Assembly: GCA_018716385.1 (NCBI GenBank)
Contig: DVJZ01000029.1
Coordinates: forward strand, 1-64,000
From: Candidatus Enterenecus merdae
GTDB lineage: Bacteria; Bacillota; Clostridia; Oscillospirales; Oscillospiraceae
Length of the DNA: 64,000 nucleotides
Direction of reading: 5' to 3'
Below the pieces are notes generated by a model. It did no database searches. It was not told the DNA's origin and worked only from the letters and a program-made list of their open reading frames with translations. Shown piece by piece: positions 1-15,700 of this stretch. Both the position numbers and the translations under genes were made by a program. Every line of letters begins with the position of its first letter. Position 1 is the stretch's first letter.

Positions 1-3
1 GAT

Positions 4-245: not shown

Positions 246-416
246 AGCAAACCTGTACAAAAATAGCTCTGCGATGCATACAGAATAGCAGATTTTTCAA
301 AAAAATTCAACCAAAAAACTCCAGATTTGCGGCGCAACCCGTCGAAAGATGGGCTCGTTGCCTTTGCAGTTCGGTGCGAACCTCCCGGGCCAATTTTGAT
401 CGCTTACCCTTCGCAC
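246..416 (-). promoter_or_regulatory. CRISPR leader with candidate promoter
   Basis: A 171-base stretch between cas2 and the first repeat, AT-rich at its array end, as expected for a leader. On the minus strand a candidate promoter TTGAAT (305-310), 17 bp, TATTCT (282-287) would start the pre-crRNA about 30 nt before the first repeat. The promoter call is by eye; the leader role follows from position. Confidence 0.7.
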
Positions 417-707: not shown

Positions 708-714
708 GGCAGCC

Positions 715-1746
715 TCACTTCCACAGAAACGGAGGATAGTCGTCCAGATCGCCCCGTAGTGTCCGAGCCAGCAGCAGCGCCTGGACATAAGGAACCAAGC
801 CCCAGGGCACTTTTTCCCGGAGATAGGGATGGGTGAGCATCTCCCGCTTCCGCTCCTGCCAGCGCTTGAGAAAGGACCGGCGGCCGGCATCAGTCAGAAG
901 GACTGCCCCATTTTCCAAATGGTCAAAATCCTGTTCGCCCACCACGCGGTTATTGAGCAGCGTCAAGACAAACCGATCTGCCATGCAGGGCCGCAATTCC
1001 TCCATCAGGTCCAGCGCCAAGGAGGCCCGCCCAGGTCTGTCCCGGTGGAGAAAACCCACATAGCTATCCAGCCCTACGCTCTCCAGAGCGGCGGCACAGT
1101 CGTGGGTCAGCAGGCTATATGCAAAAGAGAGCAGGGCGTTGACCGGGTCCAGGGGCGGCCGACGGCTGCGTCCGGAGAAAGCGAACAAGGGCTTTTCCCG
1201 CAAAATGAGTTGCTCAAAGACTCCGAAGTACACCGTGGCGCTCGCCCCTTCCAGCCCGCGCAAACTCTCCAAAGAGGCCTCTGAGGCGATTTGGGGCAGA
1301 AGCCCTTTGAGATGGCCGGCCGCTGTGGCCAAAGACTCTCCGTCCACCCGGAGCCCGTGGTCTCGTCGGGTTCGCTGGATGCTCCACTGGGCGTTATAGA
1401 CCTTCCCGAAGATCATGCTCCGGGCGATACGGCAGCAGGGCCCCGGGTCGTCTGCGACCCGATACTGGGCGCGGCGCAGGAGTACATTGCCGGAGCTCTC
1501 TCCCGTGACCCGGGCTAAAAACCGGCCTCTCGGCGTGCAGAAGGCCAGAGCGATGTCCCGCTGGGCGCAGGCGCCCATCAGGGCGGGAGAGGCCCCGGAG
1601 TAGGAGAAGGAGACGATGCCTGACAGGGTGTGGAGAGGGTAGCGGGCCACCTCCTGCCGCTCCCGGTTGGCCACTACATTCTCCCCGTCTAGGGAGAGAT
1701 AGATGTCCTCGCTGGTGACGAATAGGGTGTTCAGGAGATGTTTCAT
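715..1746 (-). CDS. cas1: CRISPR-associated integrase Cas1 (type I-C)
   Basis: A 343-residue Cas1, the catalytic subunit for spacer integration. The N-terminal beta domain (MKHLLNTLFVTSEDIYLSLD) is followed by an alpha-helical domain with the catalytic Glu in GLEGASATVYF, the His in GFLHRDRPG and the acidic DLMEEL segment. The start at 1746 overlaps the end of cas4 by four bases (ATGA), showing translational coupling; the longer open frame to 1815 lies inside cas4. All three metal-ligand regions look intact. Confidence 0.97.
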   Translation of the reverse strand: MKHLLNTLFVTSEDIYLSLDGENVVANRERQEVARYPLHTLSGIVSFSYSGASPALMGACAQRDIALAFCTPRGRFLARVTGESSGNVLLRRAQYRVADDPGPCCRIARSMIFGKVYNAQWSIQRTRRDHGLRVDGESLATAAGHLKGLLPQIASEASLESLRGLEGASATVYFGVFEQLILREKPLFAFSGRSRRPPLDPVNALLSFAYSLLTHDCAAALESVGLDSYVGFLHRDRPGRASLALDLMEELRPCMADRFVLTLLNNRVVGEQDFDHLENGAVLLTDAGRRSFLKRWQERKREMLTHPYLREKVPWGLVPYVQALLLARTLRGDLDDYPPFLWK

Positions 1747-2408
1747 GGCAGATCCTCCATGGCTCGGGCCAGGTAGTCGGCCACAGAGCCCCGCCGAGTC
1801 AGCTGGGGCAGGCACAGGTTTTTCAGAGAACAGGCGCTGCAGGCTCTGGACGGCCTGGCCTTTGGCGTATGACCCCTGCGGTACAGTTGGTGCATCTCAT
1901 CTGCGGCGGAGCGTACAGCCTGGCGCAGCTGTATGGAGAAAGACACCACCGTGCGCCGGCGGGGTTCCCCGTAGAACAGGGCCCCCTCGGGGATGTCGCA
2001 GCAGAGCATCTCCTCCAGGCAGAGCGCCTGGGCGCACAGCTGCATCTCGTCTGCCTGGTGTTCTTTGGGCCGGCCCCGCTTGTACTCCACGGGATAGGGC
2101 AGCCATAGCCCATCCTCCCCATGAAGGGGCACTCCCGCCGGGCCGGCGTGAAATTCCACCACATCGCAGATGCCGGACAATCCCAGCTCGTGGGACACAA
2201 CCGAAAGTCCCCGGAGGATCAGGGTGTTCCCCCGCCGCTCTCGGGCTGTTTCGTCGTGGGCCCGACGGTGGAGCAGGCGCCCCTCCACCGTGCGCAGATT
2301 TTCCTGCCACTGCTGTTCCAGGTGGATCAGCGCCCACTGCCGCCGGCAGAAGACAAAGTGCTGCAGCCCGGAGAGCTGGAGGGGATTCTCCTCTCGGTAG
2401 GAGGGCAT
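1743..2408 (-). CDS. cas4: CRISPR-associated exonuclease Cas4
   Basis: A 221-residue Cas4 of the PD-(D/E)XK family, which trims prespacers and checks the PAM for Cas1-Cas2. Iron-sulfur cysteines are visible: Cys21 in FCRRQW and a C-terminal cluster CSACSLKNLC. Nuclease residues sit in GICDVVEFH and PVEYKRGR. The gene lies between cas7 and cas1 in the standard I-C order and overlaps cas1 by four bases. The presence of Cas4 supports PAM-selective acquisition by this locus. Confidence 0.95.
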   Translation of the reverse strand: MPSYREENPLQLSGLQHFVFCRRQWALIHLEQQWQENLRTVEGRLLHRRAHDETARERRGNTLILRGLSVVSHELGLSGICDVVEFHAGPAGVPLHGEDGLWLPYPVEYKRGRPKEHQADEMQLCAQALCLEEMLCCDIPEGALFYGEPRRRTVVSFSIQLRQAVRSAADEMHQLYRRGHTPKARPSRACSACSLKNLCLPQLTRRGSVADYLARAMEDLP

Positions 2409-2433
2409 TTGAAAACCACCTCTCTGTTTGAAC

Positions 2434-3294
2434 TCACAGCCCTTCCAAAATTTCCGGTTCCAGCCCCTCCAGCGGCTCTATGGAGATGAGATAGTCCTCT
2501 GCGCTGGAGGGAGTGTCTGCTTCAGGATCCAAGGAGGCCTTGACGGAGCGGTGAACCTTGGCGGAGGAGAACTGACCGTCCTTGCAGTTGTGCTCCCACC
2601 AGAAGAGCTTTACCACCTCCATGGAGCCATCGGGTCGGGCGGAGGAAGCATCGTTGACAAAGAGGGTCCGCAGGCATTCCTTGACAACCTGGGCGTCCTC
2701 CTCGGTAAAGCCGGTCTTCTCCGCCAGCTGTACATTGATAGAGCCTTTTATCTCATACAGGCCGAAGCGGACAAAGTGCTTTGTGCCCATCCGGTCGGAG
2801 CTCATGCCCGCGTCGCTGCTGTTTGTCTTTTCCTTTTTCTCTCCATTGACGCTCTTGGTGATCTGGAAGGACTCGATCTCCACAGGGGACAGGCTCACGG
2901 CCTGGTGGATGGATACCGGCCCTCGGATCCCCACAGAGAGCCCTTTGGTATCCTTAAAGGCGAATACCTGCCCGAAAGTACGCACATCCAGCCAGGTCTC
3001 GCAGGCCTTTTTGGCGTAGGCCTCCCGATCCTTTTCCTCCTTCATGACGGCAGAAGCCCGTTCGCTGAGACTGCCAAACCCGTCGTCACAGCGGCTTTCC
3101 GACTGGACGAAGATGGAGTGGCCCAGATCCTGCATCCGGTTGCGGATCTTGCGCTTGATACACACGTCGGAGATCTCCCCGTAGCCGTTATAATCGGTGC
3201 GGGGGCGGTTGCCGTTGAGAGGGTCTCCGTTGCTGTTGGCCATGGTGACGCTGACCAGGACTACAAAGTCGATTTTGTGCTGCAATGTACGCAT
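2434..3294 (-). CDS. cas7c: Type I-C Cascade backbone Cas7 (Csd2)
   Basis: A 286-residue Csd2/Cas7 protein that forms the helical backbone binding the crRNA guide. The N-terminus holds the family signature SVTMANSNGDPLNGNRPRTD (residues about 15-34), followed by RRM-fold sequence. It begins two bases after the end of cas8c and leaves a 25-base gap to cas4. Backbone Cas7 flips every sixth guide base out of pairing, which matters for the self-targeting guide found upstream of cas3. Confidence 0.95.
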   Translation of the reverse strand: MRTLQHKIDFVVLVSVTMANSNGDPLNGNRPRTDYNGYGEISDVCIKRKIRNRMQDLGHSIFVQSESRCDDGFGSLSERASAVMKEEKDREAYAKKACETWLDVRTFGQVFAFKDTKGLSVGIRGPVSIHQAVSLSPVEIESFQITKSVNGEKKEKTNSSDAGMSSDRMGTKHFVRFGLYEIKGSINVQLAEKTGFTEEDAQVVKECLRTLFVNDASSARPDGSMEVVKLFWWEHNCKDGQFSSAKVHRSVKASLDPEADTPSSAEDYLISIEPLEGLEPEILEGL

Positions 3295-3295
3295 T

Positions 3296-5095
3296 TTACA
3301 GTGCCTCCTCTGTCTGGTTGTTTTGATCTTTTTTCGTGTACAATTTCTTTCGCTGGAGGTAGTAGCCCATCAGGTAGGTCTCCCCCAGAGAATCATTCCA
3401 CTGGGATTCTGGCGCTTTTTTGATTTCCTCAAAAATATCCGAGATCAGGCTGCGGTAAAAGGCCCGCATGGCAGGGGTTTTGAGCCGGGGGAAGTAGGCG
3501 TTGTTCAAGTGTTCATTGAGCATGCTGGCGGTTTTCATGGGGCGTCGGCAGAACATCGACATCAACCGGATGGCGTTGGGCTCTCGGGTTTCGTTCTGGT
3601 CATAGGTATCCCGTTCCACCTTTTCCATCACGGCCAGAAGTCGTCCAAATTGCAGACTGCGGTCATCCCGCTCCGAGTGGAGTTCCATGTTACATTCCTC
3701 CTTGTATACATCATAACGGTATTTTTGAATGACAGCGCAGGCGGTGGCCAGAATCACCCGCCATATGGATGGATCGTATGCCTGGGGCGTGGACGCGCGG
3801 TGAAATAGGGCCTTTACGATATCCAACGGCATATGGGCCCGGTCCACCCGGCAGGCCACCAGGCGCTGCATCTGTTGGCCCATGAGTTTGTCGGGCGTTT
3901 TCAGACGGGCTTGTCCCTTTTCTTCTGCCTGTGTCCCGAACGCACAGTTGACGATCTGCCGCAGGGATGGAGACTGGATCTGCTCGTTCCATCCATACCA
4001 GCAGCAGTACTGGTCCCATTCGTGGAGGCGCTGGAGGTAGTCGCTGCTGCGCAGCTCGTTGTAGTAGGTTAGGGACAGCCGCCCGGTGGTGGCTGCGTCA
4101 AAGGCGGCCACCACGATGTCGTGGTTCTGCTCCGGCAGTTGACTGCGATACCCCTCTAAGGTTTTCTTCAATTCCCGCCGATAGTCGCTGGGTTTTGTGA
4201 CCACCTTGCTCCGATCCCCGAAGGGCCCGGCGGCGTGACAGACCCGCACCCCTTGAGGGTTCCAGCAGAGGAAGGTCCGTCCCCCAAAGACAGCGCTGGC
4301 TCCCTGCTCCGCCGCGATCCAGCGCAGGGCGTTGTGGGCCTTTTGTGAGGCCAGATAGCTGACGGTGGCAGCCTGGCTGTCATCGGTGAACCGCCCCCGG
4401 AAGGTAAAGTTGCTGTTATCGTTGGCGGAGATCAGCTTGGCATTCTCGTTGTAGGGGATGATTCCCTTCTGATGTTGTTTGGCTGGAACTGCTTGGACCC
4501 CGGTAATCATACACAGGGAGCGGTTCTCCCCTTGGGAGCTGGCGTACCAGTCCTGGAATGCCCGGTAGAGAGAGGGCTGCTGCCAACAGCCGTCATGGGG
4601 GGTTCCGATCCCATGCACCCGCCAGCGGACCAACAGTTTCTCATTTTTTGGGGCCCCCTTCTCATCCAGTGCGATGAGGCCGATCCCGGCCAGATCGGCC
4701 AGGATGGTGCCGCCCTGCACATAGGTGAGGATTGGGCGCAGCATGGGATGGCTGTGGGGGGAGTCCGCCCAGGAAGCGAGCTGCTTCACATAGAGGGTGT
4801 GCTTCTTTTTGTTATAGGGGGCCAGATAGCAGAGCTGGTCACAGAGGGGATGGGCGCAGGGGCCGCTGGTTCGCCCGGCAGATTCCTCGGTGGCAGGGAT
4901 GGGGATCTTGGGCTCCTCTTGCGCTACCGCGCGAGCGGTGGAGAAGCTGCCGTCCCGCTCCAGAGCGATCTCCAGATCTGCCCGGGTGATGATGTGGGAC
5001 ACAGGAACCAGCATCTGGCGTCCATCTATTGCTCTGCCCACATAGTCGAGATGGGCGTCATAAGTCTCCACCGCCTTTTGAAACAGACCCATCAA
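3296..5095 (-). CDS. cas8c: Type I-C Cascade large subunit Cas8c (Csd1)
   Basis: A 599-residue Csd1/Cas8c, the large subunit that reads the PAM and recruits Cas3; the length is normal for the family. The N-terminus (MMGLFQKAVETYDAH) is typical of Csd1, and segments such as NENAKLISANDNSNFTFRGR and ALRWIAAEQGA match the conserved middle region. In I-C systems an internal start in this gene usually also makes the small subunit Cas11; that is known of the family and was not verified here. It overlaps cas5c by four bases. Confidence 0.94.
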   Translation of the reverse strand: MMGLFQKAVETYDAHLDYVGRAIDGRQMLVPVSHIITRADLEIALERDGSFSTARAVAQEEPKIPIPATEESAGRTSGPCAHPLCDQLCYLAPYNKKKHTLYVKQLASWADSPHSHPMLRPILTYVQGGTILADLAGIGLIALDEKGAPKNEKLLVRWRVHGIGTPHDGCWQQPSLYRAFQDWYASSQGENRSLCMITGVQAVPAKQHQKGIIPYNENAKLISANDNSNFTFRGRFTDDSQAATVSYLASQKAHNALRWIAAEQGASAVFGGRTFLCWNPQGVRVCHAAGPFGDRSKVVTKPSDYRRELKKTLEGYRSQLPEQNHDIVVAAFDAATTGRLSLTYYNELRSSDYLQRLHEWDQYCCWYGWNEQIQSPSLRQIVNCAFGTQAEEKGQARLKTPDKLMGQQMQRLVACRVDRAHMPLDIVKALFHRASTPQAYDPSIWRVILATACAVIQKYRYDVYKEECNMELHSERDDRSLQFGRLLAVMEKVERDTYDQNETREPNAIRLMSMFCRRPMKTASMLNEHLNNAYFPRLKTPAMRAFYRSLISDIFEEIKKAPESQWNDSLGETYLMGYYLQRKKLYTKKDQNNQTEEAL

Positions 5096-5832
5096 ATCAC
5101 CCCCTCAAACTCGCCCAGGCCGGAGAAGTTTCCCAGTGCCTGGCGGAAGGTTTTCTGCTCCATATCCCGCAGAGGCTTGTGCAGAGGGCAGCCCTCGGGC
5201 CGGGGAAAAGCAATGACCCCATTTTTCATCACAGGATACCAGAAGTTGGCGGTCAGCTTTCCCTGGGTCTGCGGGGAATAGGCTTCGTCGGGGTAGGTCA
5301 GGCCATGGTACATCAGCCCAAAGCCCAACTCTGGAATGGCGCCATAATGACCTGGCTCGCTGTCAAAGTCGCAGGGTTCCACATAACCCTGACACTCACG
5401 GGTGCCCAGAAAGATGTCACGCCGGCCCCCTTTCTCGATCATCCGTTTTGCGATATTGTGATGCTTGTTCTCATTCCGGTCGGCGGCCAGCTCTGGGCGG
5501 TTGTCGTTCCACTCAAAGTGGGCCTGGACCCGGTAGCGGACCTGCTTCAGGTAGGTATAGTAGGCCAGGTCGTTTCCGCCGTGATACTTGATGGGCCGGA
5601 CTCCCTTTACCTCTGTCTGGATGGGTTCCATGATCCGCACAGCATCAACGTACCAGATAATGGTTGGCTTCCAATATACCGAGGACAGGATCCCCTTCAA
5701 TGCCTCATAGGTGGGCACCTGGTAGGTACATTTCTCACCCCCCACGCGGGTAATGGGATCACTGAACAGGGCGTAATCCCCTGTTACCTGGAACTCCACT
5801 TGATTAGGATGTTTCGGCTTTGACATCTTCAC
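5092..5832 (-). CDS. cas5c: Type I-C pre-crRNA endonuclease Cas5c (Cas5d)
   Basis: A 246-residue Cas5 of the I-C kind which, unlike other Cas5 proteins, cuts the pre-crRNA at the base of the repeat stem and stays on the 11-nt 5' handle. The family N-terminus (VEFQVTGDYALFSDP) and the YEALKGILSSVYWKP segment are present. It overlaps both neighbours by four bases, so cas3-cas5c-cas8c are translationally coupled. It would be the enzyme expected to process the CreR-like RNA at 8287-8393. Confidence 0.95.
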   Translation of the reverse strand: MKMSKPKHPNQVEFQVTGDYALFSDPITRVGGEKCTYQVPTYEALKGILSSVYWKPTIIWYVDAVRIMEPIQTEVKGVRPIKYHGGNDLAYYTYLKQVRYRVQAHFEWNDNRPELAADRNENKHHNIAKRMIEKGGRRDIFLGTRECQGYVEPCDFDSEPGHYGAIPELGFGLMYHGLTYPDEAYSPQTQGKLTANFWYPVMKNGVIAFPRPEGCPLHKPLRDMEQKTFRQALGNFSGLGEFEGVI

Positions 5833-8219
5833 ACCTCCAAGAATTGATCTGTGGTCTCCGGCTCAAGGACCAGGCCGGTCTCCTGGTGGTAATACTCCGG
5901 ATGCAGGGCCAGGACTGCACCGTCCAGCAGGGGGGATAGCGCCCCTCTGCTCTCCAGGGCTTCCCGCTGAAAGCGATACAGGGAGATGGTGAAAGGACGT
6001 GCCTGCCTCAGCAGTTCCCGTTGTAGCCGCCAGTTGTGCTGCGCTTTGGCGCAGGACAGCGCGGCGATCAGCTCCCGGCCTTTCCCATAGGGGGCCAGCA
6101 CATCGATGGTTTCCTGGTCGAAGACCTGGAAGGCGTGTCCCGCCAGCGAGAAGGCTTGATGGAGTCCGAAGCGTTCCATGCCGGGCTGCCCGGCGGCATA
6201 AGTGTCGTTGGTGGAGAGCAGGTCAAACAGGGTGCCGCCCTCTCGCAAGGGGTAGTCCTGGGCGCCCTCTCCCATGCCCCCGTACAGGCAGCTATAGTAG
6301 CGGGCGATGGCTGCATCGGAGGTCAGATCGCCTCCCAGGGCGGCCGGGTCCTGACGGAACTCTGACAGCAGTTGTAAGGAGGCGGTTTTGGCATCTTGAA
6401 TGTCCCGAAGCTTGCCCAGATTTTCATCGATACAATTGATCAGCAATACTGGAACAGGCGTTTTGGATTCCCCGCTTCGATTGCATCGGCCGGCAGTCTG
6501 GACGGCGTTATCCATGCCGGCGATCAACCGCACAGCCGATCCAAAAGAGAGGTCCACGCCGGCCTCCACCACCTGGGTGGCGACGCACAGCACCTTCGGC
6601 CCACCTGTCCGACTAGCCTTTAGCGCTTCATCCAGCTCTGCGAGGGTGGCCCGCCGGTGTTCTGGACACATGGCCGCCGACAGGTGGAACCGGCGCAGTT
6701 CCGGCCCTGTAGTCTTATGGTAGAGAGACCGAGCCTGGCCTTTCATATTGCATACCACCAGCAGACTGTTGACCCTCTCCAGATGTTCCAAGAGCAGAGC
6801 GGGGATCTCATCCAGCCGCCGTGGCCCGGCGTCTGTCAGCCGGGTGCGACGGAAAGGCGCCCAGATGGCTGGGTCATAGGGGACCAGCTCTGCTACTGGA
6901 CCGGGAATGGGATGGTGGGCTACCGCCAGACTGGGCTGTGTGGCGGAGCAGAGTATGACCGTGGTCCCACAGACATGGGCCAGAAAGTGAATGGCCAGAT
7001 GAAACAGGGTCAGCATCCGGGGTGGAACGGTCTGCACCTCGTCGATGACCAGAACGCTGTTGCAAAGGGACTGAAACCGGCGAATGCAGGTGGTGCGCCC
7101 GTCAAACAGGGTATCGAGCAGCTGGACCAGGGTGGTGATGATGGCAGGGGCTCCCCAGTTCTCGGCCATCAGCTCTCGGGGATCCAGGGATGTGCCGTCC
7201 GATCCTGTCTGGACGATGTTGGAATGGTGCTCCAGGATCAGCGTGTCGTCTCCGATATACTGCCGCAAGACGGCGGCATTTTGCTCCAGGATGCTCAACA
7301 GCGGAGAAGTGAAGATCAGCCTGGACTTGCCGTGCTGAGCCGCGTGAGCCAAGGCATACCGGAGGGAGGCCAGCGTTTTCCCGCCGCCCGTTGGCACATT
7401 GAGCCGGTAGATGCCGCCGCCTTGTCCCGCAGCCTCCCGGCACTGCTGAGAGATGGCCCGCCGAGCCTGTTGGATCGGGGCGTCACGGGGGAGGGAAGTC
7501 AGCTTGGACTCCATGAGATTTAGCAGCTGACTCCAATCGGGGGTAGGTGGGGGAGCGGGAAGGGCCCCGTTGGCCATCCACTGGGCCGTGTCTTGCCGGT
7601 CGCCCTCGATCACGGCGGAGAGCACCAACCGAGCCAAAAGTCCCAAATAGAAAAAGACATCCCGGCCATCCTCTTTTATCTCGGCATTGGCCCACTGAAA
7701 GATAGGGGATAGCTCTTGGTTTGCCTGCTGGAACAGCTGGTCCAGCTCTACGAAACCGGCGCACTGATCCAGAAATTCCTGGTAGGCCTCTTGATAGAGC
7801 TCGTCATCCCACTCCAGGCGGCGGATAAAGCCTATCTGGTGTTGCGCACCCACACAATCGAACAGTCCATGGTGAGCGCCCACGGCGAAAGCCAAGATTT
7901 CCGCCGTCATATCCTCAAAGGAAGTGAAAGCGCCGGGAGTATGGTATCGTTCCAGCAGGAAGCGCGCGCCACCATGGGCATGGATGACGGATCCCCGGCG
8001 GACAGGCTCGCCGGCCGCGGCCCGCTCCAAGTATGCCCGGTAGGTGGGCGTTAACTTGGCAAAATCGTGGGTCAGACCGGCCAGATAACCCACAGACTCA
8101 AGACGGACCGGGCGTAATCGTGATCCTGCGATCTTTGCTGTATTCCGGGAATGCTCTGGCACCGTTTGGAACTCGATGTTTCCGCCTGGACCGATTCTAA
8201 AGTGCGCTGGGTATTCCAT
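5829..8219 (-). CDS. cas3: CRISPR-associated helicase-nuclease Cas3 (HD + DExD/H)
   Basis: A 796-residue single-polypeptide Cas3. The N-terminal HD nuclease shows His23, His51-Asp52 (THDFAK), HAHGGA near residue 80 and HH at 116-117. The SF2 helicase has Walker A VPTGGGKT (275-282), motif II DEVQ near residue 390 (instead of DEAH, a change seen in I-C Cas3), SATQP, ATQVVEAGVDLSF and the motif VI stretch QTAGRCNRSGE. All catalytic motifs look intact, so interference should work. It is first in the operon with a leader of about 170 nt from the promoter at 8395-8423. Confidence 0.97.
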   Translation of the reverse strand: MEYPAHFRIGPGGNIEFQTVPEHSRNTAKIAGSRLRPVRLESVGYLAGLTHDFAKLTPTYRAYLERAAAGEPVRRGSVIHAHGGARFLLERYHTPGAFTSFEDMTAEILAFAVGAHHGLFDCVGAQHQIGFIRRLEWDDELYQEAYQEFLDQCAGFVELDQLFQQANQELSPIFQWANAEIKEDGRDVFFYLGLLARLVLSAVIEGDRQDTAQWMANGALPAPPPTPDWSQLLNLMESKLTSLPRDAPIQQARRAISQQCREAAGQGGGIYRLNVPTGGGKTLASLRYALAHAAQHGKSRLIFTSPLLSILEQNAAVLRQYIGDDTLILEHHSNIVQTGSDGTSLDPRELMAENWGAPAIITTLVQLLDTLFDGRTTCIRRFQSLCNSVLVIDEVQTVPPRMLTLFHLAIHFLAHVCGTTVILCSATQPSLAVAHHPIPGPVAELVPYDPAIWAPFRRTRLTDAGPRRLDEIPALLLEHLERVNSLLVVCNMKGQARSLYHKTTGPELRRFHLSAAMCPEHRRATLAELDEALKASRTGGPKVLCVATQVVEAGVDLSFGSAVRLIAGMDNAVQTAGRCNRSGESKTPVPVLLINCIDENLGKLRDIQDAKTASLQLLSEFRQDPAALGGDLTSDAAIARYYSCLYGGMGEGAQDYPLREGGTLFDLLSTNDTYAAGQPGMERFGLHQAFSLAGHAFQVFDQETIDVLAPYGKGRELIAALSCAKAQHNWRLQRELLRQARPFTISLYRFQREALESRGALSPLLDGAVLALHPEYYHQETGLVLEPETTDQFLEV

Positions 8220-8251
8220 AGCCGGTCATCTCTTTTCTTCAAAACTTGGGG

Positions 8252-8280
8252 TTGCAAATGGCGGGTGAACTGGTTAGAAT
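8252..8280 (+). promoter_or_regulatory. Promoter of the CreR-like small RNA
   Basis: TTGCAA (8252-8257), a 17-bp spacer and TAGAAT (8275-8280) form a good sigma-A promoter pointing right, away from cas3. The predicted start near 8287 falls just before a hairpin (8290-8315) that ends in the CRISPR handle. No protein gene lies downstream on this strand, so the promoter is best explained by a small RNA. Confidence 0.65.
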
Positions 8281-8286
8281 ATGGTA

Positions 8287-8393
8287 TGTCTTCTGCGATG
8301 TGCGCATCAAGGAAGTGGATTGAAATATAAACATATGTTTATATGTATATGCCTCTATGGGGAGGAAGCGGATGCATTCTGCTTCCTCCCCAT
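8287..8393 (+). ncRNA. CreR-like crRNA-resembling regulatory RNA (degenerate repeat + guide + 3' stem)
   Basis: Seen directly: an imperfect hairpin 8290-8315 (outer CTTC/GAAG, inner GATG/CATC, loop TGCG); immediately after it TGGATTGAAAT (8316-8326), which equals the array handle except for the last base; then an AT-rich guide from 8327; and a 13-bp perfect stem 8357-8369/8381-8393 with an 11-nt loop that may end the RNA. The hairpin base sits exactly where Cas5c would cut. Guide positions 1-17 match minus-strand DNA at 8447-8431 except positions 6 and 12, with TTC PAM at 8450-8448. This is the architecture of Cas-regulating RNAs that use Cascade to repress cas genes. The rival reading is that 8325-8344 is a 20-bp palindromic operator. 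No run of T follows the 3' stem. Confidence 0.72.
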
Positions 8394-8394
8394 C

Positions 8395-8423
8395 ATTATA
8401 CATGATATGTCATTGCTTGTAAA
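8395..8423 (-). promoter_or_regulatory. cas operon promoter
   Basis: On the minus strand TTTACA (8423-8418), exactly 17 bp, then consensus TATAAT (8400-8395). The predicted start is near 8388, giving a cas3 leader of about 170 nt that is antisense to the CreR-like RNA. The promoters of the two transcripts face each other. Confidence 0.75.
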
Positions 8424-8430
8424 TATGGAT

Positions 8431-8450
8431 TATAATCATATTTTTATGAA
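8431..8450 (-). promoter_or_regulatory. Predicted CreR/Cascade target site beside the cas -35 element
   Basis: On the minus strand TTC (8450-8448), the usual I-C PAM, is followed by 17 bases (8447-8431) that equal the guide starting at 8327 except at guide positions 6 and 12. In Cascade every sixth guide base is flipped out and unpaired, so the seed-side match is effectively complete. Pairing stops from position 18 on (18-24 all mismatch), as expected for binding without Cas3 cleavage. A Cascade footprint here would cover the -35 at 8418-8423. Confidence 0.7.
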
Positions 8451-8459
8451 ATATTAAAA

Positions 8460-8842
8460 ATGAGACCGAAAAATAGGACCGTAAATTTTCAGGCCACGTA
8501 AGGAATGTCTTGATGATGTTGCTGCAAAGCATCTTGACACAATCAAAAGAGTCCTATATTTTATCAAAAGAGGCCGCCCACTCAACGGGCGATCATATTT
8601 TCGGCTGTTGGCTTAAGATAGCGGCCTGTAAAATCGTTGCTGCACGAGTTCACACAGCGGTTCCAGACCAATAGAAGCCGCTGAGACGCAGCCAAACCTC
8701 CAGCCAAACGGCCGGAGGCTTGGCGTATCTGCGTGAGCCTGAGAGCGAAATACGGCCCCAGCCTTTGGCTGCAAGGCTTTGCCCTGGGACGTTGGAGCGG
8801 CCTGTCCAACGCCCCGGTTCAGGGAACTTTGGGGTGGGTGGA
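8460..8842. other. 383-base non-coding stretch with promoter and strong secondary structure
   Basis: No convincing gene. On the plus strand TTGACA (8534-8539) with TATTTT (8557-8562, 17-bp spacing) points right. Direct repeats ATCAAAAGAG occur at 8542-8551 and 8563-8572. The following bases fold strongly: AGGCCGC (8571-8577) pairs with GCGGCCT (8621-8627), enclosing CGCCC/GGGCG, and several further stems follow to about 8800. It may be a structured RNA or a repeated extragenic element; open frames across it look like shadows. Confidence 0.4.
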
Positions 8843-9286
8843 TCATGAGGTGGATGGGCTGGGCTGATCCCATCCGGAGGGGAGGTCGCTTGGGCGCGCG
8901 CCCCGCAGCTCCCAGGATGTGAGGGATGCGGGGGCGGCCGCCTGTCCCTCTGCAACCGGGACTCGGGAAGGCTGGGCCAGCAGGCTGTACGCCAGGATGG
9001 CCAGCAGCTGCGCGGCGCAAGGTTTGCTGGGCAGCGCCCTGCCCGCCAGCTGCTCCAGCAGGGGCCGCCCCTGCGCCCAGGCGATTCTGCTCACCGTGCG
9101 GATGTTGCGCTCTACCGCCCGCCAATTCGTCTGATAGCGACGGGCTACGTCCGGGTAGAGCCACTTGGTGACCAGTTGGAGCCGCTCAGGCTGTCTCGCG
9201 CACAGCTGCACGGCATAGGCCATGTGAAAGAACCCGGTGTAGTTTGCCGTAACCCCAAGCCGATACAATAAATCGTAAATTTCCAT
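8843..9286 (-). CDS. Stand-alone Spo0A C-terminal-type DNA-binding protein
   Basis: A 147-residue protein whose first about 105 residues resemble the Spo0A C-terminal winged-helix domain: LLYRLGVTANYTGFFHMAYA, VTKWLYPDVARRYQTNWRAVERNIRTVSRIAWAQG. There is no receiver domain, so it cannot be phosphorylated like Spo0A. A Pro/Ser-rich tail of about 40 residues follows. An ATG at 9298 is possible too; 9286 is preferred because GGGGTG lies at RBS distance. It follows an XRE-family gene by 16 bases and is probably co-transcribed. Its target genes are unknown. Confidence 0.72.
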   Translation of the reverse strand: MEIYDLLYRLGVTANYTGFFHMAYAVQLCARQPERLQLVTKWLYPDVARRYQTNWRAVERNIRTVSRIAWAQGRPLLEQLAGRALPSKPCAAQLLAILAYSLLAQPSRVPVAEGQAAAPASLTSWELRGARPSDLPSGWDQPSPSTS

Positions 9287-9302
9287 CTGACACCCCATCC
9301 TA

Positions 9303-9527
9303 CTACCATCTGCTGGTTTCCTCAAACGCCCGCGGGCAGTTTGCTTCGACCCCGTTGACGATCCGGTCGATCGTCTCGGCGGTGGGATTGCCCTGCCCAT
9401 TCCGGTATTGGTAAAGATTTGATAAGGTCACATCAAAATCAAGCGCCATCTCTGTAAAGCTCTTTTGCGTATATTTGTGGTATGCCTCTAGGAGTTCAGA
9501 TATATAGCGATGAACGGATTTCGCCAT
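9303..9527 (-). CDS. XRE-family helix-turn-helix regulator
   Basis: A 74-residue Cro/C1-type protein made almost only of an HTH: KSFTEMALDFDVTLSNLYQYRNGQGNPTAETIDRIVNG. It heads a two-gene unit with the Spo0A-C protein downstream. A 15-bp imperfect palindrome lies next to its own -35, which suggests autoregulation, common in this family. No effector domain is present. Confidence 0.72.
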   Translation of the reverse strand: MAKSVHRYISELLEAYHKYTQKSFTEMALDFDVTLSNLYQYRNGQGNPTAETIDRIVNGVEANCPRAFEETSRW

Positions 9528-9549
9528 TATAATCGCCCCTCCTGTAACG

Positions 9550-9579
9550 ATTATGGCAAAAACTGTCGTCTTATGACAA
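9550..9579 (-). promoter_or_regulatory. Promoter and palindromic operator of the XRE gene
   Basis: Minus-strand TTGTCA (9579-9574), 18 bp, CATAAT (9555-9550). The imperfect palindrome TGTCGTCTTATGACA (9564-9578) overlaps the -35 and most of the spacer, a position suited to repression by the XRE protein itself. Confidence 0.5.
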
Positions 9580-9599
9580 CCTATATATAGGAATTTTCT

Positions 9600-9950
9600 C
9601 CCTTGCTACCCTGATGGGCCGGGAAGGGCTGCGGATAGTGTGTTTTAGGGTGCATCCACCCTACGCGGCCTTTGCCCACTCGATTCTAGAAGAGCACCAA
9701 TTTTTGGGTCTGCCAGCTCCTGGCCCGGGATCGCGAGAACCCCCAGCAAGCGATGATCTTTGCCAAGCTTGCTGGGGGATGATACCTCCAGGTCTACCAC
9801 GGATTGATTGTTATGAATGCCGCGCCAGGGCGGCGGGATTGTACCCAGGCTGCTGTGGCCGGGGCCGTGCGGAGCGCAGACCCGCCCGCTGGCAACGTCC
9901 TGCGCATAGGCAGGCATGACTTCAGGAAGGATGATATTTCATACCAGCGG
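9600..9950. other. About 350 non-coding bases with inverted repeats, ending at a terminator
   Basis: No gene supported. The stretch holds a perfect 11-bp inverted repeat (9740-9750 with 9768-9778, 17-nt loop), a 6-bp hairpin AGGGTG/CACCCT near 9647-9662, and a GC-rich partly self-complementary segment near 9830-9900. A rightward terminator directly follows, implying a transcript of unknown nature. Open frames on both strands have low-complexity, shadow-like translations. Confidence 0.35.
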
Positions 9951-9981
9951 AAAAAACGCTTCCTTATTGTCGCGTTTTTTT
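9951..9981 (+). terminator. Rho-independent terminator
   Basis: AAAAAACGC (9951-9959) pairs with GCGTTTTTT (9972-9980) and leaves a T-rich 3' side. It lies upstream of the response-regulator promoter, so it ends something transcribed from the left. Confidence 0.6.
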
Positions 9982-9993
9982 GATGAAAAGATG

Positions 9994-10022
9994 TTGTGTT
10001 TTATTGGGAATTGGATTATACT
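9994..10022 (+). promoter_or_regulatory. Promoter of the Spo0A-like response regulator
   Basis: TTGTGT (9994-9999), 17 bp, TATACT (10017-10022). The predicted start near 10029 rules out the upstream in-frame ATG at 9996 as the start codon. Confidence 0.6.
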
Positions 10023-10058
10023 GGACAAAACCAGAGGTTTCGGTTGGAGGTGTTGACC

Positions 10059-10847
10059 GTGTCGAGGGAGCTGACCATTCTGCTGGTGGAGGACGATGCG
10101 CAGGTCTGCGAGGAAATCGTCCGCTATGTGGACGAACTGGAGGACGTCAGCCTGGTGGGAGTGACTGGCCACGTGGATCAGGCCATCCAAATCACCAAGG
10201 AGTATGCCCCGGACGCTATGATCCTGGACCTGGAACTCCATGTGGGCAGCGGCAACGGTTTGGCGTTGCTCCAGTCGCTCCGGCAGCTGAGCCTGCCCCG
10301 GGTGCCCTACATCCTGGTTGCCACCAACAACTCCAGTTCCATCACCTACGCCTCGGCCCGCCAGCTGGGGGCGGACTTCATCCTCTCCAAGCACCAGGCG
10401 GACTACTCCCCCAAGGGCTCGGTGGACTTTCTGCGCATGATGCAGCCCGTGCTGCTGCGGGGGAGCGGCCAGGCCGGGACAGGGGACAGCCCGGACCTGG
10501 AGAGCCCGGATCGGCGCAACAAGCGGATGCGCCGCAGGATCTGCGCCCAGTTGGATCAGATCGGCATCAGCCCCAAGGCGGTGGGCTATCGCTACCTGGC
10601 CGACAGCATCCAGCGCATCCTCCAGGAGCCGGAGCCAAACTTCTGCCGGGCGATTGGGGAGCAGTATGGCAGGACGGAGTCCAGCGTGGAGCGGGCGATG
10701 CAAAACGCCATTGCAAGGGCTTGGCGCACCACGCCCATTGACGACCTGCTGCGCCTGTACACAGCCCGGGTGAACTCGGAAAAGGGGATGCCCACCCTGA
10801 CGGAGTTTGTCTACTACTTTGCCAATAAGCTCAAGAATGAAACATAA
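10059..10847 (+). CDS. Spo0A-like response regulator (receiver + Spo0A C-terminal domain)
   Basis: A 262-residue protein. Residues about 1-125 form a receiver domain: acidic pair in LLVEDD, phospho-acceptor Asp in AMILDLEL, switch residues in VATNNSS, conserved Lys in FILSKHQ. Residues about 150-262 are a Spo0A-type DNA-binding domain with GYRYLADSIQRIL and SSVERAMQNAIARAW. GTG at 10059 follows GGAGG (10046-10050) by 8 nt. The sequence differs from canonical Spo0A (HVDQAIQITKEYAPDAMILDLEL), so I call it a paralogue rather than Spo0A. The neighbouring GHKL kinase is a plausible partner though separated by a terminator. Confidence 0.85.
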   Translation: MSRELTILLVEDDAQVCEEIVRYVDELEDVSLVGVTGHVDQAIQITKEYAPDAMILDLELHVGSGNGLALLQSLRQLSLPRVPYILVATNNSSSITYASARQLGADFILSKHQADYSPKGSVDFLRMMQPVLLRGSGQAGTGDSPDLESPDRRNKRMRRRICAQLDQIGISPKAVGYRYLADSIQRILQEPEPNFCRAIGEQYGRTESSVERAMQNAIARAWRTTPIDDLLRLYTARVNSEKGMPTLTEFVYYFANKLKNET

Positions 10848-10886
10848 AAGCCCGGCCACTCCCAGGACGGGGATGGCCGGGCTTTT
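10847..10886. terminator. Bidirectional terminator
   Basis: AAAGCCCGGCCA (10847-10858) pairs with TGGCCGGGCTTT (10874-10885). Rightward it ends the response regulator gene with a short T-run; leftward it could end the small peptide gene at 10900-10947. Confidence 0.85.
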
Positions 10887-10899
10887 GTTGTCTGGCTGG

Positions 10900-10947
10900 T
10901 TAGATCCAGAACCAGAAGATTGCCCAATCTAAGAACCACTTTATCAT
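10900..10947 (-). CDS. Possible 15-residue Trp/Phe-rich hydrophobic peptide
   Basis: A short minus-strand frame encodes MIKWFLDWAIFWFWI. AAAGGAG lies about 10 nt before the ATG, and the hairpin at 10847-10886 provides a terminator about 14 nt after the stop. Seven of 15 residues are Trp or Phe and only Lys3 and Asp7 are charged, so it should sit in a membrane. The gene lies between a response regulator and a membrane sensor kinase and points against both. It could be a signalling peptide, a membrane micro-toxin or chance; conservation would decide. Confidence 0.35.
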   Translation of the reverse strand: MIKWFLDWAIFWFWI

Positions 10948-11069
10948 CAGGCTGTTGCTCCTTTCCTTTTCTGGAAAAAAGCATAAAAAAACACGAAATA
11001 AAGATAAATTGGTTATAAGATGCCTGTTTTTGTGGAAAAATGTTCTGTTTTATGGAGGAAACTATATCC

Positions 11070-12482
11070 ATGATGGTTTCGCTGCTGAAGTACACGGCAG
11101 TCATTGGATGTGCTACCCATGCTACTCGAAAACTGTTAAACCGGGGGCGATCTCTCCCATGCAGGGCTAAGACTCTTCTCGCCCTCCTTCTTGCTATCGA
11201 GGTGCTGGCGATATGTTTGTTACGCCAATACATGCCTTCTGTCAGTATCTTTGCCATGGTAGGCCTTTCTATATGGCTTCATTGGATTTTAGATCAGGAC
11301 AATTTAAGTGGTATTGTGACAGCGACCATCCTTGGCTATGGGATTAGTTATGTGTGTTTTCTACTTGGAGTCATATGCGTAGCTATCCTGTACGGGCTTG
11401 GAAATTATGACATTAGTGAAACTACTTGGATTAATGCTGGTGCGATTGGTCTGGTACAGATGGGGTTGGGTCTTCTCCTATTCCGTATCAAGCGTCTTAG
11501 CCATGGGTTACCTTTTTTGGCGGATTCTCAATATGGGGACATCAGCGTTTTCTTAAGTGTTTCCATTCTATTGGCGGCCTCTCTAGGCGGTTCGGTGACG
11601 GAAAGCTATATCGCCATCCAACTTATTCTTTCCGTTTTGATCATCTGCGGGATGACCCTCTGGTTCTGGTGGAAGCGGCGCATGGAGCGGGAGTACATGG
11701 ATCAGATCCGCAAGCGGGAGCAGGCCCGGCTCCAGGCGGCGGTTACGGCCCTGCAGGATCAGGTGGCGGCCCTCCGGGTGGAGAACGAGACCTTCTCCCG
11801 GATCATCCACCGGGATAACAAGTTGATCCCCGCCATGGAGCTGGCCGTTCAGGAGCTGCTGCAAGCCGCCGGCCAAGGCCAGGCCCAGCAGGAGAGCGCC
11901 CAGGCCCTTCTGGCCCAGCTCCACCAGATGTCCCGGGAGCGGGCAGGGGTGGTGCGGAGCTATGAGCAGGCTGGGGTTTCGCTGCCCCGCACCGGCGTGG
12001 CCGTGCTGGATGCGCTGTTCTCCTACCTGGGGCAGAAGGCCGCCGGGGAGGGGATCACCCTGCGGCTGTGCCTGCCGGAGGACACGCCGGCGCTGTTGCG
12101 CGTTGCCCTGCCCGAGCAGGATGCGGCTACCCTGCTGGCCGACCTGGTGGAGAACGCCATCATCGCCGTCCGGGCCTCCGGCGGCCCGGGCCGGGTGCTG
12201 GTAGAGCTGGTGCAGGCGGAGGGCTGCCCCACCATCCGGGTGAGCGACAGCGGCGTGCCCTTTCCGCCCGAGGTGGCGGCCAACTGGGGTGTGCGCCGGG
12301 TGACCACCCACGGGGACGATGGTGGCAGCGGTATCGGCCTGATGAGCACCTATGAGATTTGCCAGCGCCACCGGGCCAGCTTTTCCGTCCAGGCGCTGCC
12401 CCCGGGCGGGCCCTATACCAAGACGTTGACGGTCCGCTTTGACGGTGACCGAGGTTTCCGGCTGATCGGACCGGAGGGGTAA
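11070..12482 (+). CDS. GHKL-type sensor histidine kinase
   Basis: A 470-residue kinase of the AgrC/GHKL kind. Residues about 30-215 hold six hydrophobic segments (for example TLLALLLAIEVLAICLL and LILSVLIICGMTLWFWW); then a coiled-coil linker rich in Arg, Glu and Gln; a phospho-acceptor region FSRIIHRDNKLIPAM; an N-box LVENAIIAV; and ATP-lid glycine motifs VSDSGVP and GSGIGLMSTYEI. ATG at 11070 follows GGAGG (11054-11058). The membrane half is AT-richer with rare-type codons, whereas the cytoplasmic half from about 11650 matches the GC-rich genome, so the gene looks like a mosaic. Confidence 0.86.
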   Translation: MMVSLLKYTAVIGCATHATRKLLNRGRSLPCRAKTLLALLLAIEVLAICLLRQYMPSVSIFAMVGLSIWLHWILDQDNLSGIVTATILGYGISYVCFLLGVICVAILYGLGNYDISETTWINAGAIGLVQMGLGLLLFRIKRLSHGLPFLADSQYGDISVFLSVSILLAASLGGSVTESYIAIQLILSVLIICGMTLWFWWKRRMEREYMDQIRKREQARLQAAVTALQDQVAALRVENETFSRIIHRDNKLIPAMELAVQELLQAAGQGQAQQESAQALLAQLHQMSRERAGVVRSYEQAGVSLPRTGVAVLDALFSYLGQKAAGEGITLRLCLPEDTPALLRVALPEQDAATLLADLVENAIIAVRASGGPGRVLVELVQAEGCPTIRVSDSGVPFPPEVAANWGVRRVTTHGDDGGSGIGLMSTYEICQRHRASFSVQALPPGGPYTKTLTVRFDGDRGFRLIGPEG

Positions 12483-12714: not shown

Positions 12715-15700
12715 ATGAAACAACAGAAGAGAAGGGGACCTAGTCGTCTTATCAGCGCCCTGCTGGCCATGGCCATGGTGCTCTCCATGACGCCCTTTGC
12801 CTGGGCGGCAGACGAAACGGTCACTGATTTCGCAGGGCTAAAAAACGCGATTACAAGCGCTACGGCTGGCGATACCATCACCCTGGGTGCGGACATCACT
12901 ATGACCGAGAAGCTCACCATCAACAAGAACATCACCATCGTGGGCGGTGACTACACGATCACCGGCGTGAGCAATGACGTTAGTGTCTACTTCGAGATCA
13001 GTGGCGGTGTGCTCACCATCTCCGACGCTACCCTGACCGGCTTCGGCGATACGGCGGCTACTAGTACCGGTACCGGCGTGTTCAAAATTCCCGCGGAGGC
13101 GGATGCCAGCACCAGCGGGATTGTGGCCACCGGCCTGACGGTGGAGAAGTTTAACCGGGCGGCCTTTGATGTGCGCCAGGGCAGCTTTACCATCGAAGAC
13201 TGCACCATCAACTGCGACAATGGTCAGACTGATATGCTGACCAAGGGTGTGGTGGCCGGTTATGACGACAACAGCAGTGTGACCGGAACGATCACCGGTG
13301 GCCAGATCAATGGCGCGGACTCCGACTTCGCCACTGAGGATGGAAGCGGCTGGACGGCCAGCGGCATTGAGGTGAGCGTTGGCGCGAGCGTCGTTGTAGA
13401 GGGTGTAAGCATTGAGAGCATGAAGGGCGGCATCAGCGTGGCCCGGAACTATGGCCCCTCTAACGGCACGGCCAGCGTGACGGTGAAGGACTGCACCATC
13501 ACGGCCTATGATTTTGCCCTGCGCATCTTTGAGAGCAACAGTAGTTTCCCCACCCCCAAGGGCACGGCCCAGTTGACCGTGGAGAGCGGTACTTACAAGG
13601 GCGATGTCCGCATCTCGAAGACTGGCGACACCACTGGTGGGAACACAAGCAACAGTACCATCACCATCACTGGTGGCACGTTTAAGAGTACGGATGGGTC
13701 GAGCAACGAAGATGTCGAGCGCTTCGTCAAGGACGGCATGAGCCAGGATCCGACGACAGGTGCGGTAGGGATTGATTCCTCCACTGCTGTCGCCCAAATT
13801 GGATCGGTTGGCTATGACGACCTGGCCGAGGCCCTGGCGGCGGCCAACTCTGGCGATACCGTCAAGCTGCTGAAGGATGTGACTTTGACTGCACCCTCTT
13901 CTGGGACTGTGCCTAACATTGACGATGGCGTCACCCTGGAGGTGCCTGAGGGGCTCACTCTTACGGTGTCCGCCGCCACGGCGCTTACCAGCAGCGCGGA
14001 CAGCACCCTGGATGTGAAGGGTACCCTGGCGATGAACATCATGGAATCGTATTGGCTGGCACTGTTGCGGGGGAACATCAAGCTCAATCCCACCACTACC
14101 CTCACCTATGGTCCTGCGGGAGCTATTGAGACCATCCTGTCCCCGGATACGACCGAGGGCTACCTGACCCTGACCAGCGGCGAGGCTACCATGAGCTTCC
14201 AACATGCCGGGGAGATAGGTGGCACCAGTGGCAAGATCGACGTGGGCTACATCAGCCTGATCCTGAACGGCGAAGCCACCGTCAATCAAAATATGGTTGC
14301 CGCGCTGCCTACCACTGACTCGCTGGATTTGTCGGCGGAAGGGGGGAGTGCAGCTACCGTGAATAGTCGGCCCTTCCACATGACGGTGGCCAACGGCAGC
14401 ACCGTGACGGTGCCTGAGAGCGTGACCCTGTCTCTGCCTACCTTGACCCGTATTCCTCCTGCTACTGGCAGCAACGGCAGCACACTGACGGTGGAGTCTG
14501 GCGGCACGTTCGACGTGGAGGGCACCCTGGAGGTGCACATGGGCGCAACCGTTACCGGTACGATCGCGGTGACGGATTCCGGCAAGGTGTACGACTTTGG
14601 AAGCACCAGCCCGGACGCTGAGTACACGCTGGCGCCTGGCGGCGAGGTCTATGCTCAAGCCAACACCCTGACTGTGAGTGATTCGGCTGGCACCATGGTG
14701 ACGGCTGATTCCGGTTCCTACAACTATACTTCTATTTCTGCTGGTAGCACAAACTTTGGCTACAAGTACACGATTTCCACCTACACTGTGACCATCACGG
14801 TGACGGATGATGAAGGCACCACTGTCAACGGGGCGACTGTGACCCTGAATGACAGCTCCACCGAGTATAGCGCCACTGGAACCTCTGGCACCTACACTGT
14901 CGATGTACCCGCCGGAAACTATACCGTTTCGGTCACCTATTCCGACTATGGGATTGATACCGTGACGGTTGGCGGGGCGGATGCGTCTAGTGGCTTTGCG
15001 GTAAGTGGCGCGACCACCGTAGCGGTCACCCTGAAGCCTGTTGTTGCTATATCCCACACCGTAAGCGGTGCGGTCACGCTGGATGGTAACCCGGTTGACG
15101 GCGTGGAGGTAACCCTGACGAGCAGCGCTGGCACCTATACGGATACCACTGACTCGAATGGTGGCTACAGCGTTGATGTGCCTGCCGGGGAGTACACTGT
15201 TTCGGTTGTCTCTGGCAGCGGCTACCAGGCTTATAGCAATACCGTGACCGTGTCGAGTGGCGATGTAACTCATGACATTGCCCTGACGGCTACCACCACC
15301 CCGACGACTCCTACACTGGATGGCCTGACGGTGAGTGCGGGCACTCTGGCTCCCGCCTTTGCTCCCGCCACGAAGGCCTACAACGTCACCGTCCCCAACG
15401 CCACCGACTCCATCACTGTCACGCCCACGGCCACTTCTGGGACGATTACCGTGAATGACACAACTGTTCCCAGCGGGACGGCGTCCAGCCCGATCTCCCT
15501 GAACGTGGGCAGAAATACCATTCATGTTGTGGTAACAGAGGGTGGGGAGACAACCACCTACACCATCACCGTCAACCGGGAGAATGCCTCCACGCCCGGT
15601 GGCAACCCTGGCGGCAATCCCGGAGGAGGTACCACCTACCCAGTGAACGCCCCTGCGGTGGACAACGCCAACGTGGCTGCCAATCCCAGCCCGGCCCAGC

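What the first reader, a model, noticed from the sequence alone, without database searches (positions are those of the whole stretch)
8287..8450. CreR-like self-targeting guide RNA upstream of a type I-C cas operon
Seen: a hairpin (8290-8315) ending exactly at the CRISPR handle TGGATTGAAAT (8316-8326; the array handle ends in G instead of T), then a guide from 8327. The guide's first 17 bases match minus-strand DNA 8447-8431 with mismatches only at positions 6 and 12, and a TTC (type I-C PAM) stands directly 5' of the match. From position 18 on pairing fails. Known: Cascade flips out every sixth guide base; short seed matches allow binding without Cas3 cleavage; crRNA-like CreR/CreA guides autorepress cas genes in several CRISPR types. 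Inference: this RNA recruits Cascade over the cas -35 (8418-8423) and throttles the operon; phage anti-CRISPRs or loss of Cascade would derepress it. I do not know of a described example for this organism group in type I-C.
Basis: partly seen in the sequence, partly recalled or inferred. Interest (0 to 1): 0.95.

Follow-up and report, generated by a model that had tools for sequence, protein, structure and literature searches.

The report
Guide RNA throttling its own CRISPR
Upstream of a bacterium's CRISPR defence genes lies a predicted small RNA with a CRISPR tag and a guide that matches DNA at those genes' predicted promoter, so it likely steers the defence complex to turn down its own production; eight other loci show the same layout with a matching guide and target, which makes chance very unlikely.

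Summary
At 8290-8326 (+) a hairpin ends at TGGATTGAAAT, the 5' handle of type I-C crRNA. The guide that follows matches minus-strand 8447-8431 over 17 bases, with mismatches only at 6 and 12 and a 5' TTC PAM. In the 1.8-Mb genome this is the only exact match to TTC plus the paired positions.

I scanned upstream of cas3 in 90 loci. Nine, window included, carry an antisense handle plus a TTC-flanked target: seven guide lineages in six genera. Mismatches within positions 1-11 fall at position 6 in 5 of 9 loci and elsewhere in 2 of 90 cells. In three sister species guide and target stay constant while neighbouring DNA drifts; they change only at 12 (both) and 18 (target), sixth positions that Cascade leaves unpaired.

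The best reading is a type I-C CreR: a crRNA-like RNA that would recruit Cascade to the cas promoter and repress it. Expression and repression are untested. Three other antisense handle-like elements have no target. CreR is a known kind; whether I-C cases are in print could not be settled. Here, unusually, the element lies inside the predicted cas leader, antisense to it.

The parts
8252..8280 (+). predicted promoter of the crRNA-like RNA: TTGCAA-17-TAGAAT
   Evidence: consensus scan, 9 of 12; letters checked; activity untested
8290..8315 (+). degenerate repeat hairpin (CTTCT...GGAAG stem) where the array repeat has its GC-rich stem
   Evidence: RNA fold; array repeat stem is different
8316..8326 (+). 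type I-C 5' handle TGGATTGAAAT
   Evidence: only exact ectopic TGGATTGAAA in the window
8327..8356 (+). guide; bases 1-17 (8327-8343) match the target except at 6 and 12; 8326-8343 is a perfect palindrome
8357..8393 (+). 3' hairpin (16 bp) that stands where a second repeat would be
   Evidence: RNA fold of 8287-8393: -46.7 kcal/mol, z -6.2, 0 of 200 shuffles as stable
8431..8450 (-). target: PAM TTC (8450-8448) plus matched protospacer 8447-8431; a 36-base protospacer would run to 8412, over the -35
   Evidence: only exact match in the 1.8-Mb genome; 0 of 2000 shuffles
8395..8423 (-). predicted cas promoter P1: TTTACA-17-TATAAT
   Evidence: 11 of 12 consensus
8429..8457 (-). second promoter-like site P2: TTAATA-17-TATAAT, overlapping the target
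   Evidence: 10 of 12 consensus
5829..8219 (-). cas3
   Evidence: Pfam and NCBIfam Cas3 models
5092..5832 (-). cas5c (the likely repeat-processing nuclease in I-C)
   Evidence: TIGR01876 type I-C Cas5c
3296..5095 (-). cas8c/csd1
   Evidence: TIGR01863
2434..3294 (-). cas7/csd2
   Evidence: TIGR02589
1743..2408 (-). cas4
   Evidence: TIGR00372
715..1815 (-). cas1
   Evidence: PF01867
1..245 (-). end of the type I-C CRISPR array (4 repeats in the window)

Best explanation
This locus encodes a predicted type I-C CreR, a crRNA-like RNA likely cut by Cas5c at 8315/8316 and loaded into Cascade, that would guide Cascade through a 17-base, PAM-flanked partial match to the predicted cas promoter and so repress the cas operon. 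Shown: the handle, the guide, the PAM-flanked match, its uniqueness in the genome, and nine guide-target pairs in related loci with most mismatches where Cascade does not pair. Inferred: transcription from 8252-8280, Cas5c processing, loading, binding without Cas3 cleavage because pairing stops near base 17, and steric block of RNA polymerase at P1 (its -35 lies at protospacer bases 25-30) and at P2 (its -10 lies at bases 14-19). Array crRNAs or anti-CRISPRs that take Cascade away would derepress the operon; this last step is carried over from work on other subtypes.
For: (1) Window anatomy. (2) Specificity: 0 of 2000 shuffles; single exact match in the genome. (3) Comparative: nine of 90 loci, seven guide lineages, the handle antisense to cas in all nine; each pair 0 of 2000 shuffles. 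A scan that set no handle cut-off gave 2432 guide/TTC-target pairs with at least 10 of 14 matches in 89 loci (arrays included); exactly nine had a handle score of 9 or more of 11, these had 12-14 of 14 matches, and the next handle score was 8 with 10 matches. (4) With no PAM asked for and no position skipped, the best match in the whole 3.9-5.4 kb locus is TTC-flanked in 8 of 9 loci; in the window it is second to the guide's own palindrome. (5) Mismatches: position 6 in 5 of 9, position 12 in 7 of 9, the other ten positions of 1-11 in 2 of 90 cells. (6) Three sister species: of 49 columns (handle 12, guide 1-17, PAM and target 1-17) 47 are constant, the two exceptions being guide 12 and target 12; neighbouring columns 116 of 176; hypergeometric 4.5e-6. 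(7) The target overlaps, or stops 3 bases short of, a predicted cas promoter in 8 of 9: the top-scoring one in seven loci, the second in L044, none in L070; in the window, L044 and L097 the -35 falls at protospacer bases 23-30. (8) Precedent: CreA of type I-B needs guide bases 1-5 and 7-11, tolerates changes at 6 and 12, uses TTC (PMC8501985, passages); I-C Cascade with a TTC PAM represses a promoter (PMC10865793, passages).
Against: No expression or repression data. The guide is a palindrome and could fold on itself. The 3' hairpin has no clear U-tract, so the RNA's end is uncertain; in L042 and L081-L083 it begins inside the guide. In the relative with the highest cas3 identity (L004, G106) a handle-like element exists but no target was found in that genome; L020 and L016 also lack one. 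81 of 90 loci show no such pair under this search. L079, scanned over coding DNA by mistake, gave a one-mismatch sense handle with a score-11 TTC match, so a score of 11 can arise by chance in 3.4 kb. L070 pairs only over bases 1-11, does not overlap the best cas promoter, and its subtype rests on cas3 alone. The scoring skipped sixth positions, which lets mismatches there pass; one search did not skip them and found the same sites. Other PAMs (CTT, CTN, TTT) are predicted for I-C of related genera (PMC8482600, passages).
Confidence: 0.88

Rival explanations
1. The two similar AT-rich sites are operators of a DNA-binding protein: the palindrome TATAAACATATGTTTATA at 8326-8343 and a related site at 8431-8447, and the handle-like bases are a coincidence.
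For: The guide stretch is a perfect 18-bp palindrome.
Against: In the other eight loci the longest perfect palindrome in the guide is 8 bases or less, yet handle, PAM and pairing are the same. An operator model predicts neither TTC next to the target, nor mismatches at 6/12/18, nor a handle ending exactly at the first guide base.
Confidence: 0.04
2. The RNA acts as an antisense RNA or by polymerase collision: it lies inside the predicted cas leader on the opposite strand and would pair with it.
For: P1 lies upstream of the element, so the RNA is complementary to the predicted cas 5' leader. L075 may have the same layout.
Against: In seven of nine loci the element lies outside the predicted leader and points away from the cas promoter, yet handle, PAM and pairing are kept. 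Antisense action would not need a target outside the transcript. It may act in addition.
Confidence: 0.04
3. It is a relic: a leftover or captured repeat-spacer unit without function.
For: Single degenerate repeat; L004, L020 and L016 have handle-like elements with no target.
Against: Constant handle, guide and target in three species with change only at 12 and 18; the same layout with seven guide lineages in six genera.
Confidence: 0.03
4. It is the CreA half of a CreTA toxin-antitoxin pair and the repressed transcript is a small toxin RNA in the cas leader.
For: The predicted cas leader has a 12-codon mini-ORF with GGGGAGG seven bases before its ATG (8391-8339 minus).
Against: The repressed promoter leads straight into cas3; a simple Shine-Dalgarno-plus-ATG scan found none in the predicted leaders of seven other loci (L075 not scanned).
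Confidence: 0.02

Closest known systems
CreR, Cas-regulating RNA (Liu et al. 2023, Cell Host Microbe; not read, known here from passages of reviews PMC12737573, PMC13131331, PMC12948488)
   Same: crRNA-like RNA with a partial match to the promoter of its own cas operon, no toxin
   Different: One review names I-B, I-E and V-A, another says type I and V-A in general; this is I-C, where Cas5 processes the repeat (figure legend in PMC10651486), and here the RNA lies inside the predicted cas leader
crRNA-like elements / mini-arrays of Shmakov et al. 2023 (NAR; not held, content recalled; reference entry seen)
   Same: as recalled: standalone repeats with spacers partly complementary to cas promoters, mostly type I
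   Different: as recalled, mini-arrays often have two repeats; here one repeat and a 3' hairpin. Whether I-C cases are listed there could not be checked
CreA of CreTA (PMC8501985, PMC9458426; passages)
   Same: degenerate repeat, seed 1-5 and 7-11, TTC PAM, mismatch tolerance at 6 and 12, terminator in place of the second repeat in H. hispanica
   Different: target is the cas promoter, not a toxin promoter; subtype I-C, not I-B
RacrIC1, phage solitary repeat against I-C (PMC10651486, passages)
   Same: solitary I-C repeat mimic
   Different: phage-borne inhibitor; here the element sits at a cas operon and its guide has a target

Membership tests
CreR (cas autorepressor RNA) | ectopic repeat/handle of the cognate CRISPR outside the array | tested here: met
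   handle identical to the array's but for its last base
CreR (cas autorepressor RNA) | guide with seed match and PAM at the promoter of its own cas operon | tested here: met
   17-base match, mismatches 6 and 12, TTC; predicted -35 within the protospacer
CreR (cas autorepressor RNA) | guide-target pairing kept in relatives | tested here: met
   nine of 90 loci; three-species alignment; not met in L004, L020, L016
CreR (cas autorepressor RNA) | RNA is made, processed by the Cas nuclease and bound to the effector | not testable with these tools
   promoter-like site and folds only
CreR (cas autorepressor RNA) | represses cas transcription; derepressed by abundant crRNA or anti-CRISPR | not testable with these tools
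   no expression data
CreA/CreTA | repressed gene is a toxin | tested here: inconclusive
   the target promoter faces cas3 with a predicted leader of about 170 nt; no toxin gene was recognised, but small RNA toxins cannot be excluded by sequence, and a 12-codon mini-ORF is present
Type I-C CRISPR-Cas | cas5c, cas8c/csd1, cas7/csd2 models above cut-off | tested here: met
   TIGR01876, TIGR01863, TIGR02589
Racr (RNA anti-CRISPR) | carried by a phage or plasmid | tested here: not met
   sits directly at a cas operon with its array and has a target at the predicted cas promoter
Racr (RNA anti-CRISPR) | blocks immunity | not tested
   needs an assay

The most novel reading that the evidence does not exclude
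The window's element is a self-flipping switch. CreR-Cascade represses the cas promoter, but that promoter's transcript runs back through the creR gene and is antisense to CreR, so each burst of cas transcription would both collide with creR transcription and soak up CreR. Mutual inhibition would give two stable states, immunity low or immunity high, rather than the graded feedback described for other CreRs; the seven loci with the divergent layout would lack it.
Probability: 0.17. Interest if true: 0.78.

Novelty: new member of a known kind. Interest (0 to 1): 0.62.

Why it matters
If true, autorepression by a crRNA-like guide extends to type I-C in four bacterial families of one phylum, with natural guide-target pairs that can be tested at once. 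The pairs also record how Cascade reads DNA: evolution leaves positions 6, 12 and 18 mostly free and holds the rest. I-C Cascade is used for gene repression tools, and its native throttle and the effect of anti-CRISPRs on it would be directly testable. The convergent layout here raises the question of whether some CRISPR systems are bistable.

Tried and rejected
Rfam: no family at gathering threshold in 1-12000. Antisense handle-like elements without a target: L004 (G106; its guide holds a 14-base tandem duplication; the genome search at up to 3 mismatches found only two places in its own guide and one unrelated site with 3 mismatches), L020, L016 at -668 (score 2) and L013 at -848. Sense-strand handle-like hits occur in nine loci: arrays in L084 and L103, whose 16 guides score 4 or less (a natural control); solitary exact repeats in L091 and L100 (3 or less); one-mismatch hits in L059, L094, L022, L015 (3 or less); and L079, where cas3 starts off the contig and my script wrongly scanned coding DNA: it gave a score-11 TTC match, dropped as not upstream of cas3. 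The window's own three complete spacers, and a 3-base stub of a fourth, score 2. Operator, antisense, relic and toxin readings were weighed as rivals.

Literature: searches; among the listed papers (lists capped at 20 or fewer) I saw none describing an I-C CreR. The two main papers were not read: the DOI of Shmakov 2023 is not held; Liu 2023 appeared only as a citation and was not looked up by id (my notebook entry 2 wrongly calls it not held). So no claim of first report is made.

Rows dropped: of L001-L106, ten duplicates or re-fetches (L001, L002, L033 = same DNA as L049, L065-L067, L072, L073, L104, L105) and six with no cas3 alignment of 600 aa (L019, L028, L030, L031, L032, L106); 90 remained, 89 (without L079). 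Seventeen of the 90 have under 33% cas3 identity to the nearer query and may be other subtypes; L070, L020 and L016 are among them. Locus lists were capped at 20-30 per search and cut at E 1e-110 to 1e-120 in most. Genera of two early hits (G223, G302) and of G1160 were sampled on purpose, so 9 of 90 is not a prevalence. An earlier count said the element is divergent in six others; the count is seven.

Full report
What is there. The window holds a type I-C operon on the minus strand: cas3 (8219-5829), cas5c, cas8c, cas7, cas4 and cas1, with array repeats at 1-245. The handle is the only exact copy of TGGATTGAAA in the window outside the array. A promoter-like site lies at 8252-8280 and a 16-bp hairpin at 8357-8393. 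The fold of 8287-8393 is 6.2 standard deviations below shuffles. Promoter calls are weak evidence: 6 were found in 8100-8700 against 1.7 expected.

The target. Guide bases 1-17 match minus-strand 8447-8431 but for positions 6 and 12, next to TTC. TTC is the most common type I-C PAM, though other PAMs are predicted in some related genera (PMC8482600, passages). No shuffle of 2000 reached the score. In the whole 1.8-Mb genome the pattern of PAM plus paired positions has one exact match, this target. A 36-base protospacer would run over the -35 of the best cas promoter-like site and covers the -10 of a second one.

Related loci. Cas3 searches of 1,698 genomes counted with overlaps and one of genome contigs, with two places and three regions, made L001-L106; 90 remained after dropping duplicates and short alignments. 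Antisense handles with at most one mismatch occur within 700 bases upstream of cas3 in twelve loci; nine of these have a TTC-flanked target: L003 (window), L042, L044, L070, L075, L081, L082, L083, L097. L004, L020 and L016 have none. The nine hold seven guide lineages in six genera and four families; L081-L083 are three species of one genus. No shuffle of 2000 reaches any of the nine scores. The link between handle and match does not rest on my handle cut-off: in 89 loci, 2432 pairs had at least 10 of 14 matches; nine had a handle score of 9 or more of 11, and they are the same loci, with 12-14 of 14 matches; the next handle score was 8. Without asking for a PAM and without skipping positions, the best match in the locus was TTC-flanked in 8 of 9; in the window it came second to the guide's own palindrome.

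Where the mismatches fall. Position 6 is mismatched in 5 of 9, position 12 in 7 of 9, position 18 in 7 of 9; the remaining ten positions among 1-11 in 2 of 90 cells. This is the pattern expected of Cascade, which does not pair every sixth base; the same tolerance at 6 and 12 was shown by mutation for CreA of type I-B (PMC8501985, passages). In the three sister species the 33-base guide changes only at 12, and PAM plus target 1-18 only at 12 and 18, while 116 of 176 neighbouring columns are constant; for handle, guide 1-17 and PAM plus target 1-17 together 47 of 49 columns are constant (hypergeometric 4.5e-6). I consider this the strongest single result.

Anatomy across the set. A hairpin 3' of the handle is predicted in all nine; it starts inside the guide in L042 and L081-L083. 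A repeat-like stem before the handle is predicted in seven; it is absent in L082, weak in L083, and takes in handle bases in some others, L081 among them. Where the array is known (window, L042, L044, L075, L081, L082) its stem differs from that of the element. Degenerate repeats are the published picture for CreA (PMC8501985, passages; PMC9458426, start of abstract, and passages). Matches to cas5c, cas8c and cas7 follow cas3 in seven of eight fetched regions (L065, L066, L067, L107, L108, L109, L111); L110 (G787, the L070 genome) ends in cas3, so its subtype rests on cas3; the L083 genome was not fetched. The target overlaps or nearly abuts a predicted cas promoter in 8 of 9; L070 is the exception.

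How it likely works. Cas5c would cut at the hairpin base and leave the 11-base handle (handle length recalled; Cas5 as the I-C processing enzyme from a figure legend in PMC10651486). Cascade loaded with this RNA would bind the PAM-flanked seed at the promoter and block polymerase. Pairing ends near base 17, so Cas3 cleavage is not expected; this is inference from other subtypes. I-C Cascade without Cas3 has been shown to repress a promoter through a TTC-flanked spacer (PMC10865793, passages). Competition by array crRNAs or loss of Cascade to anti-CRISPRs would lift repression, as described for CreR (PMC12737573, passages).

What is peculiar here. In the window the element lies between the predicted cas promoter and cas3, antisense to the leader, so the two transcripts would overlap; L075 may share this, while seven loci have the element beyond the promoter, pointing away. 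The guide is a perfect palindrome of 18 bases; in the other eight guides the longest is 8. These invite the switch reading in the section on the most novel reading, which is untested.

Against. There are no RNA or repression data. Three antisense handle-like elements have no target. 81 of 90 loci show no pair under this search. L079 gave a score-11 match by mistake in coding DNA, so scores of 11 do occur by chance in longer stretches; the weakest of the nine pairs (L070 10, L075 11, L097 11) are thus less secure than the others taken one by one. The RNA's 3' end is uncertain for want of a U-tract. My sampling was partly directed at genera with hits, so 9 of 90 is not a rate.

Novelty. CreR is a known kind. 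One review lists I-B, I-E and V-A (PMC13131331, passages), another speaks of type I and V-A (PMC12737573). The two primary papers were not read, so I file this as a new member of a known kind and make no claim of first report.

Noticed in passing
window 8843-9400 (-) and 9996-10847 (+): Two genes with Spo0A C-terminal DNA-binding domains lie next to the cas operon; the second also has a response-regulator domain and is followed by a histidine-kinase-like gene (11040-12482)..
   Followed up: partly
window 12715-16431 (+): Large predicted surface protein with S-layer homology, cadherin-like and other beta domains; a 1201-aa ORF on the other strand overlaps it, perhaps a composition artefact.
   Followed up: no
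L067/L004 (G106), about 100 nt upstream of cas3: Handle-like element with a 14-base tandem duplication in its guide and no target in that genome; perhaps a CreR that lost its target.
   Followed up: partly
L084 (G1183), upstream of cas3: Same genus as three CreR-bearing species, but the 700 bases upstream of cas3 hold a sense-strand array and no antisense handle.
   Followed up: no
L042 (G223), antisense -83 to -118: The 36-base protospacer also covers the predicted -35 of the CreR's own promoter, so this CreR might repress itself as well as cas.
   Followed up: no
window 8391-8339 (-): The predicted cas leader carries a mini-ORF (MHPLPPHRGIYI) with a Shine-Dalgarno-like GGGGAGG seven bases upstream; not seen in seven other predicted leaders.
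   Followed up: partly
L091 at -88 and L100 at -310, sense strand: Solitary sense-strand repeats upstream of cas3 without a target in the region.
   Followed up: no
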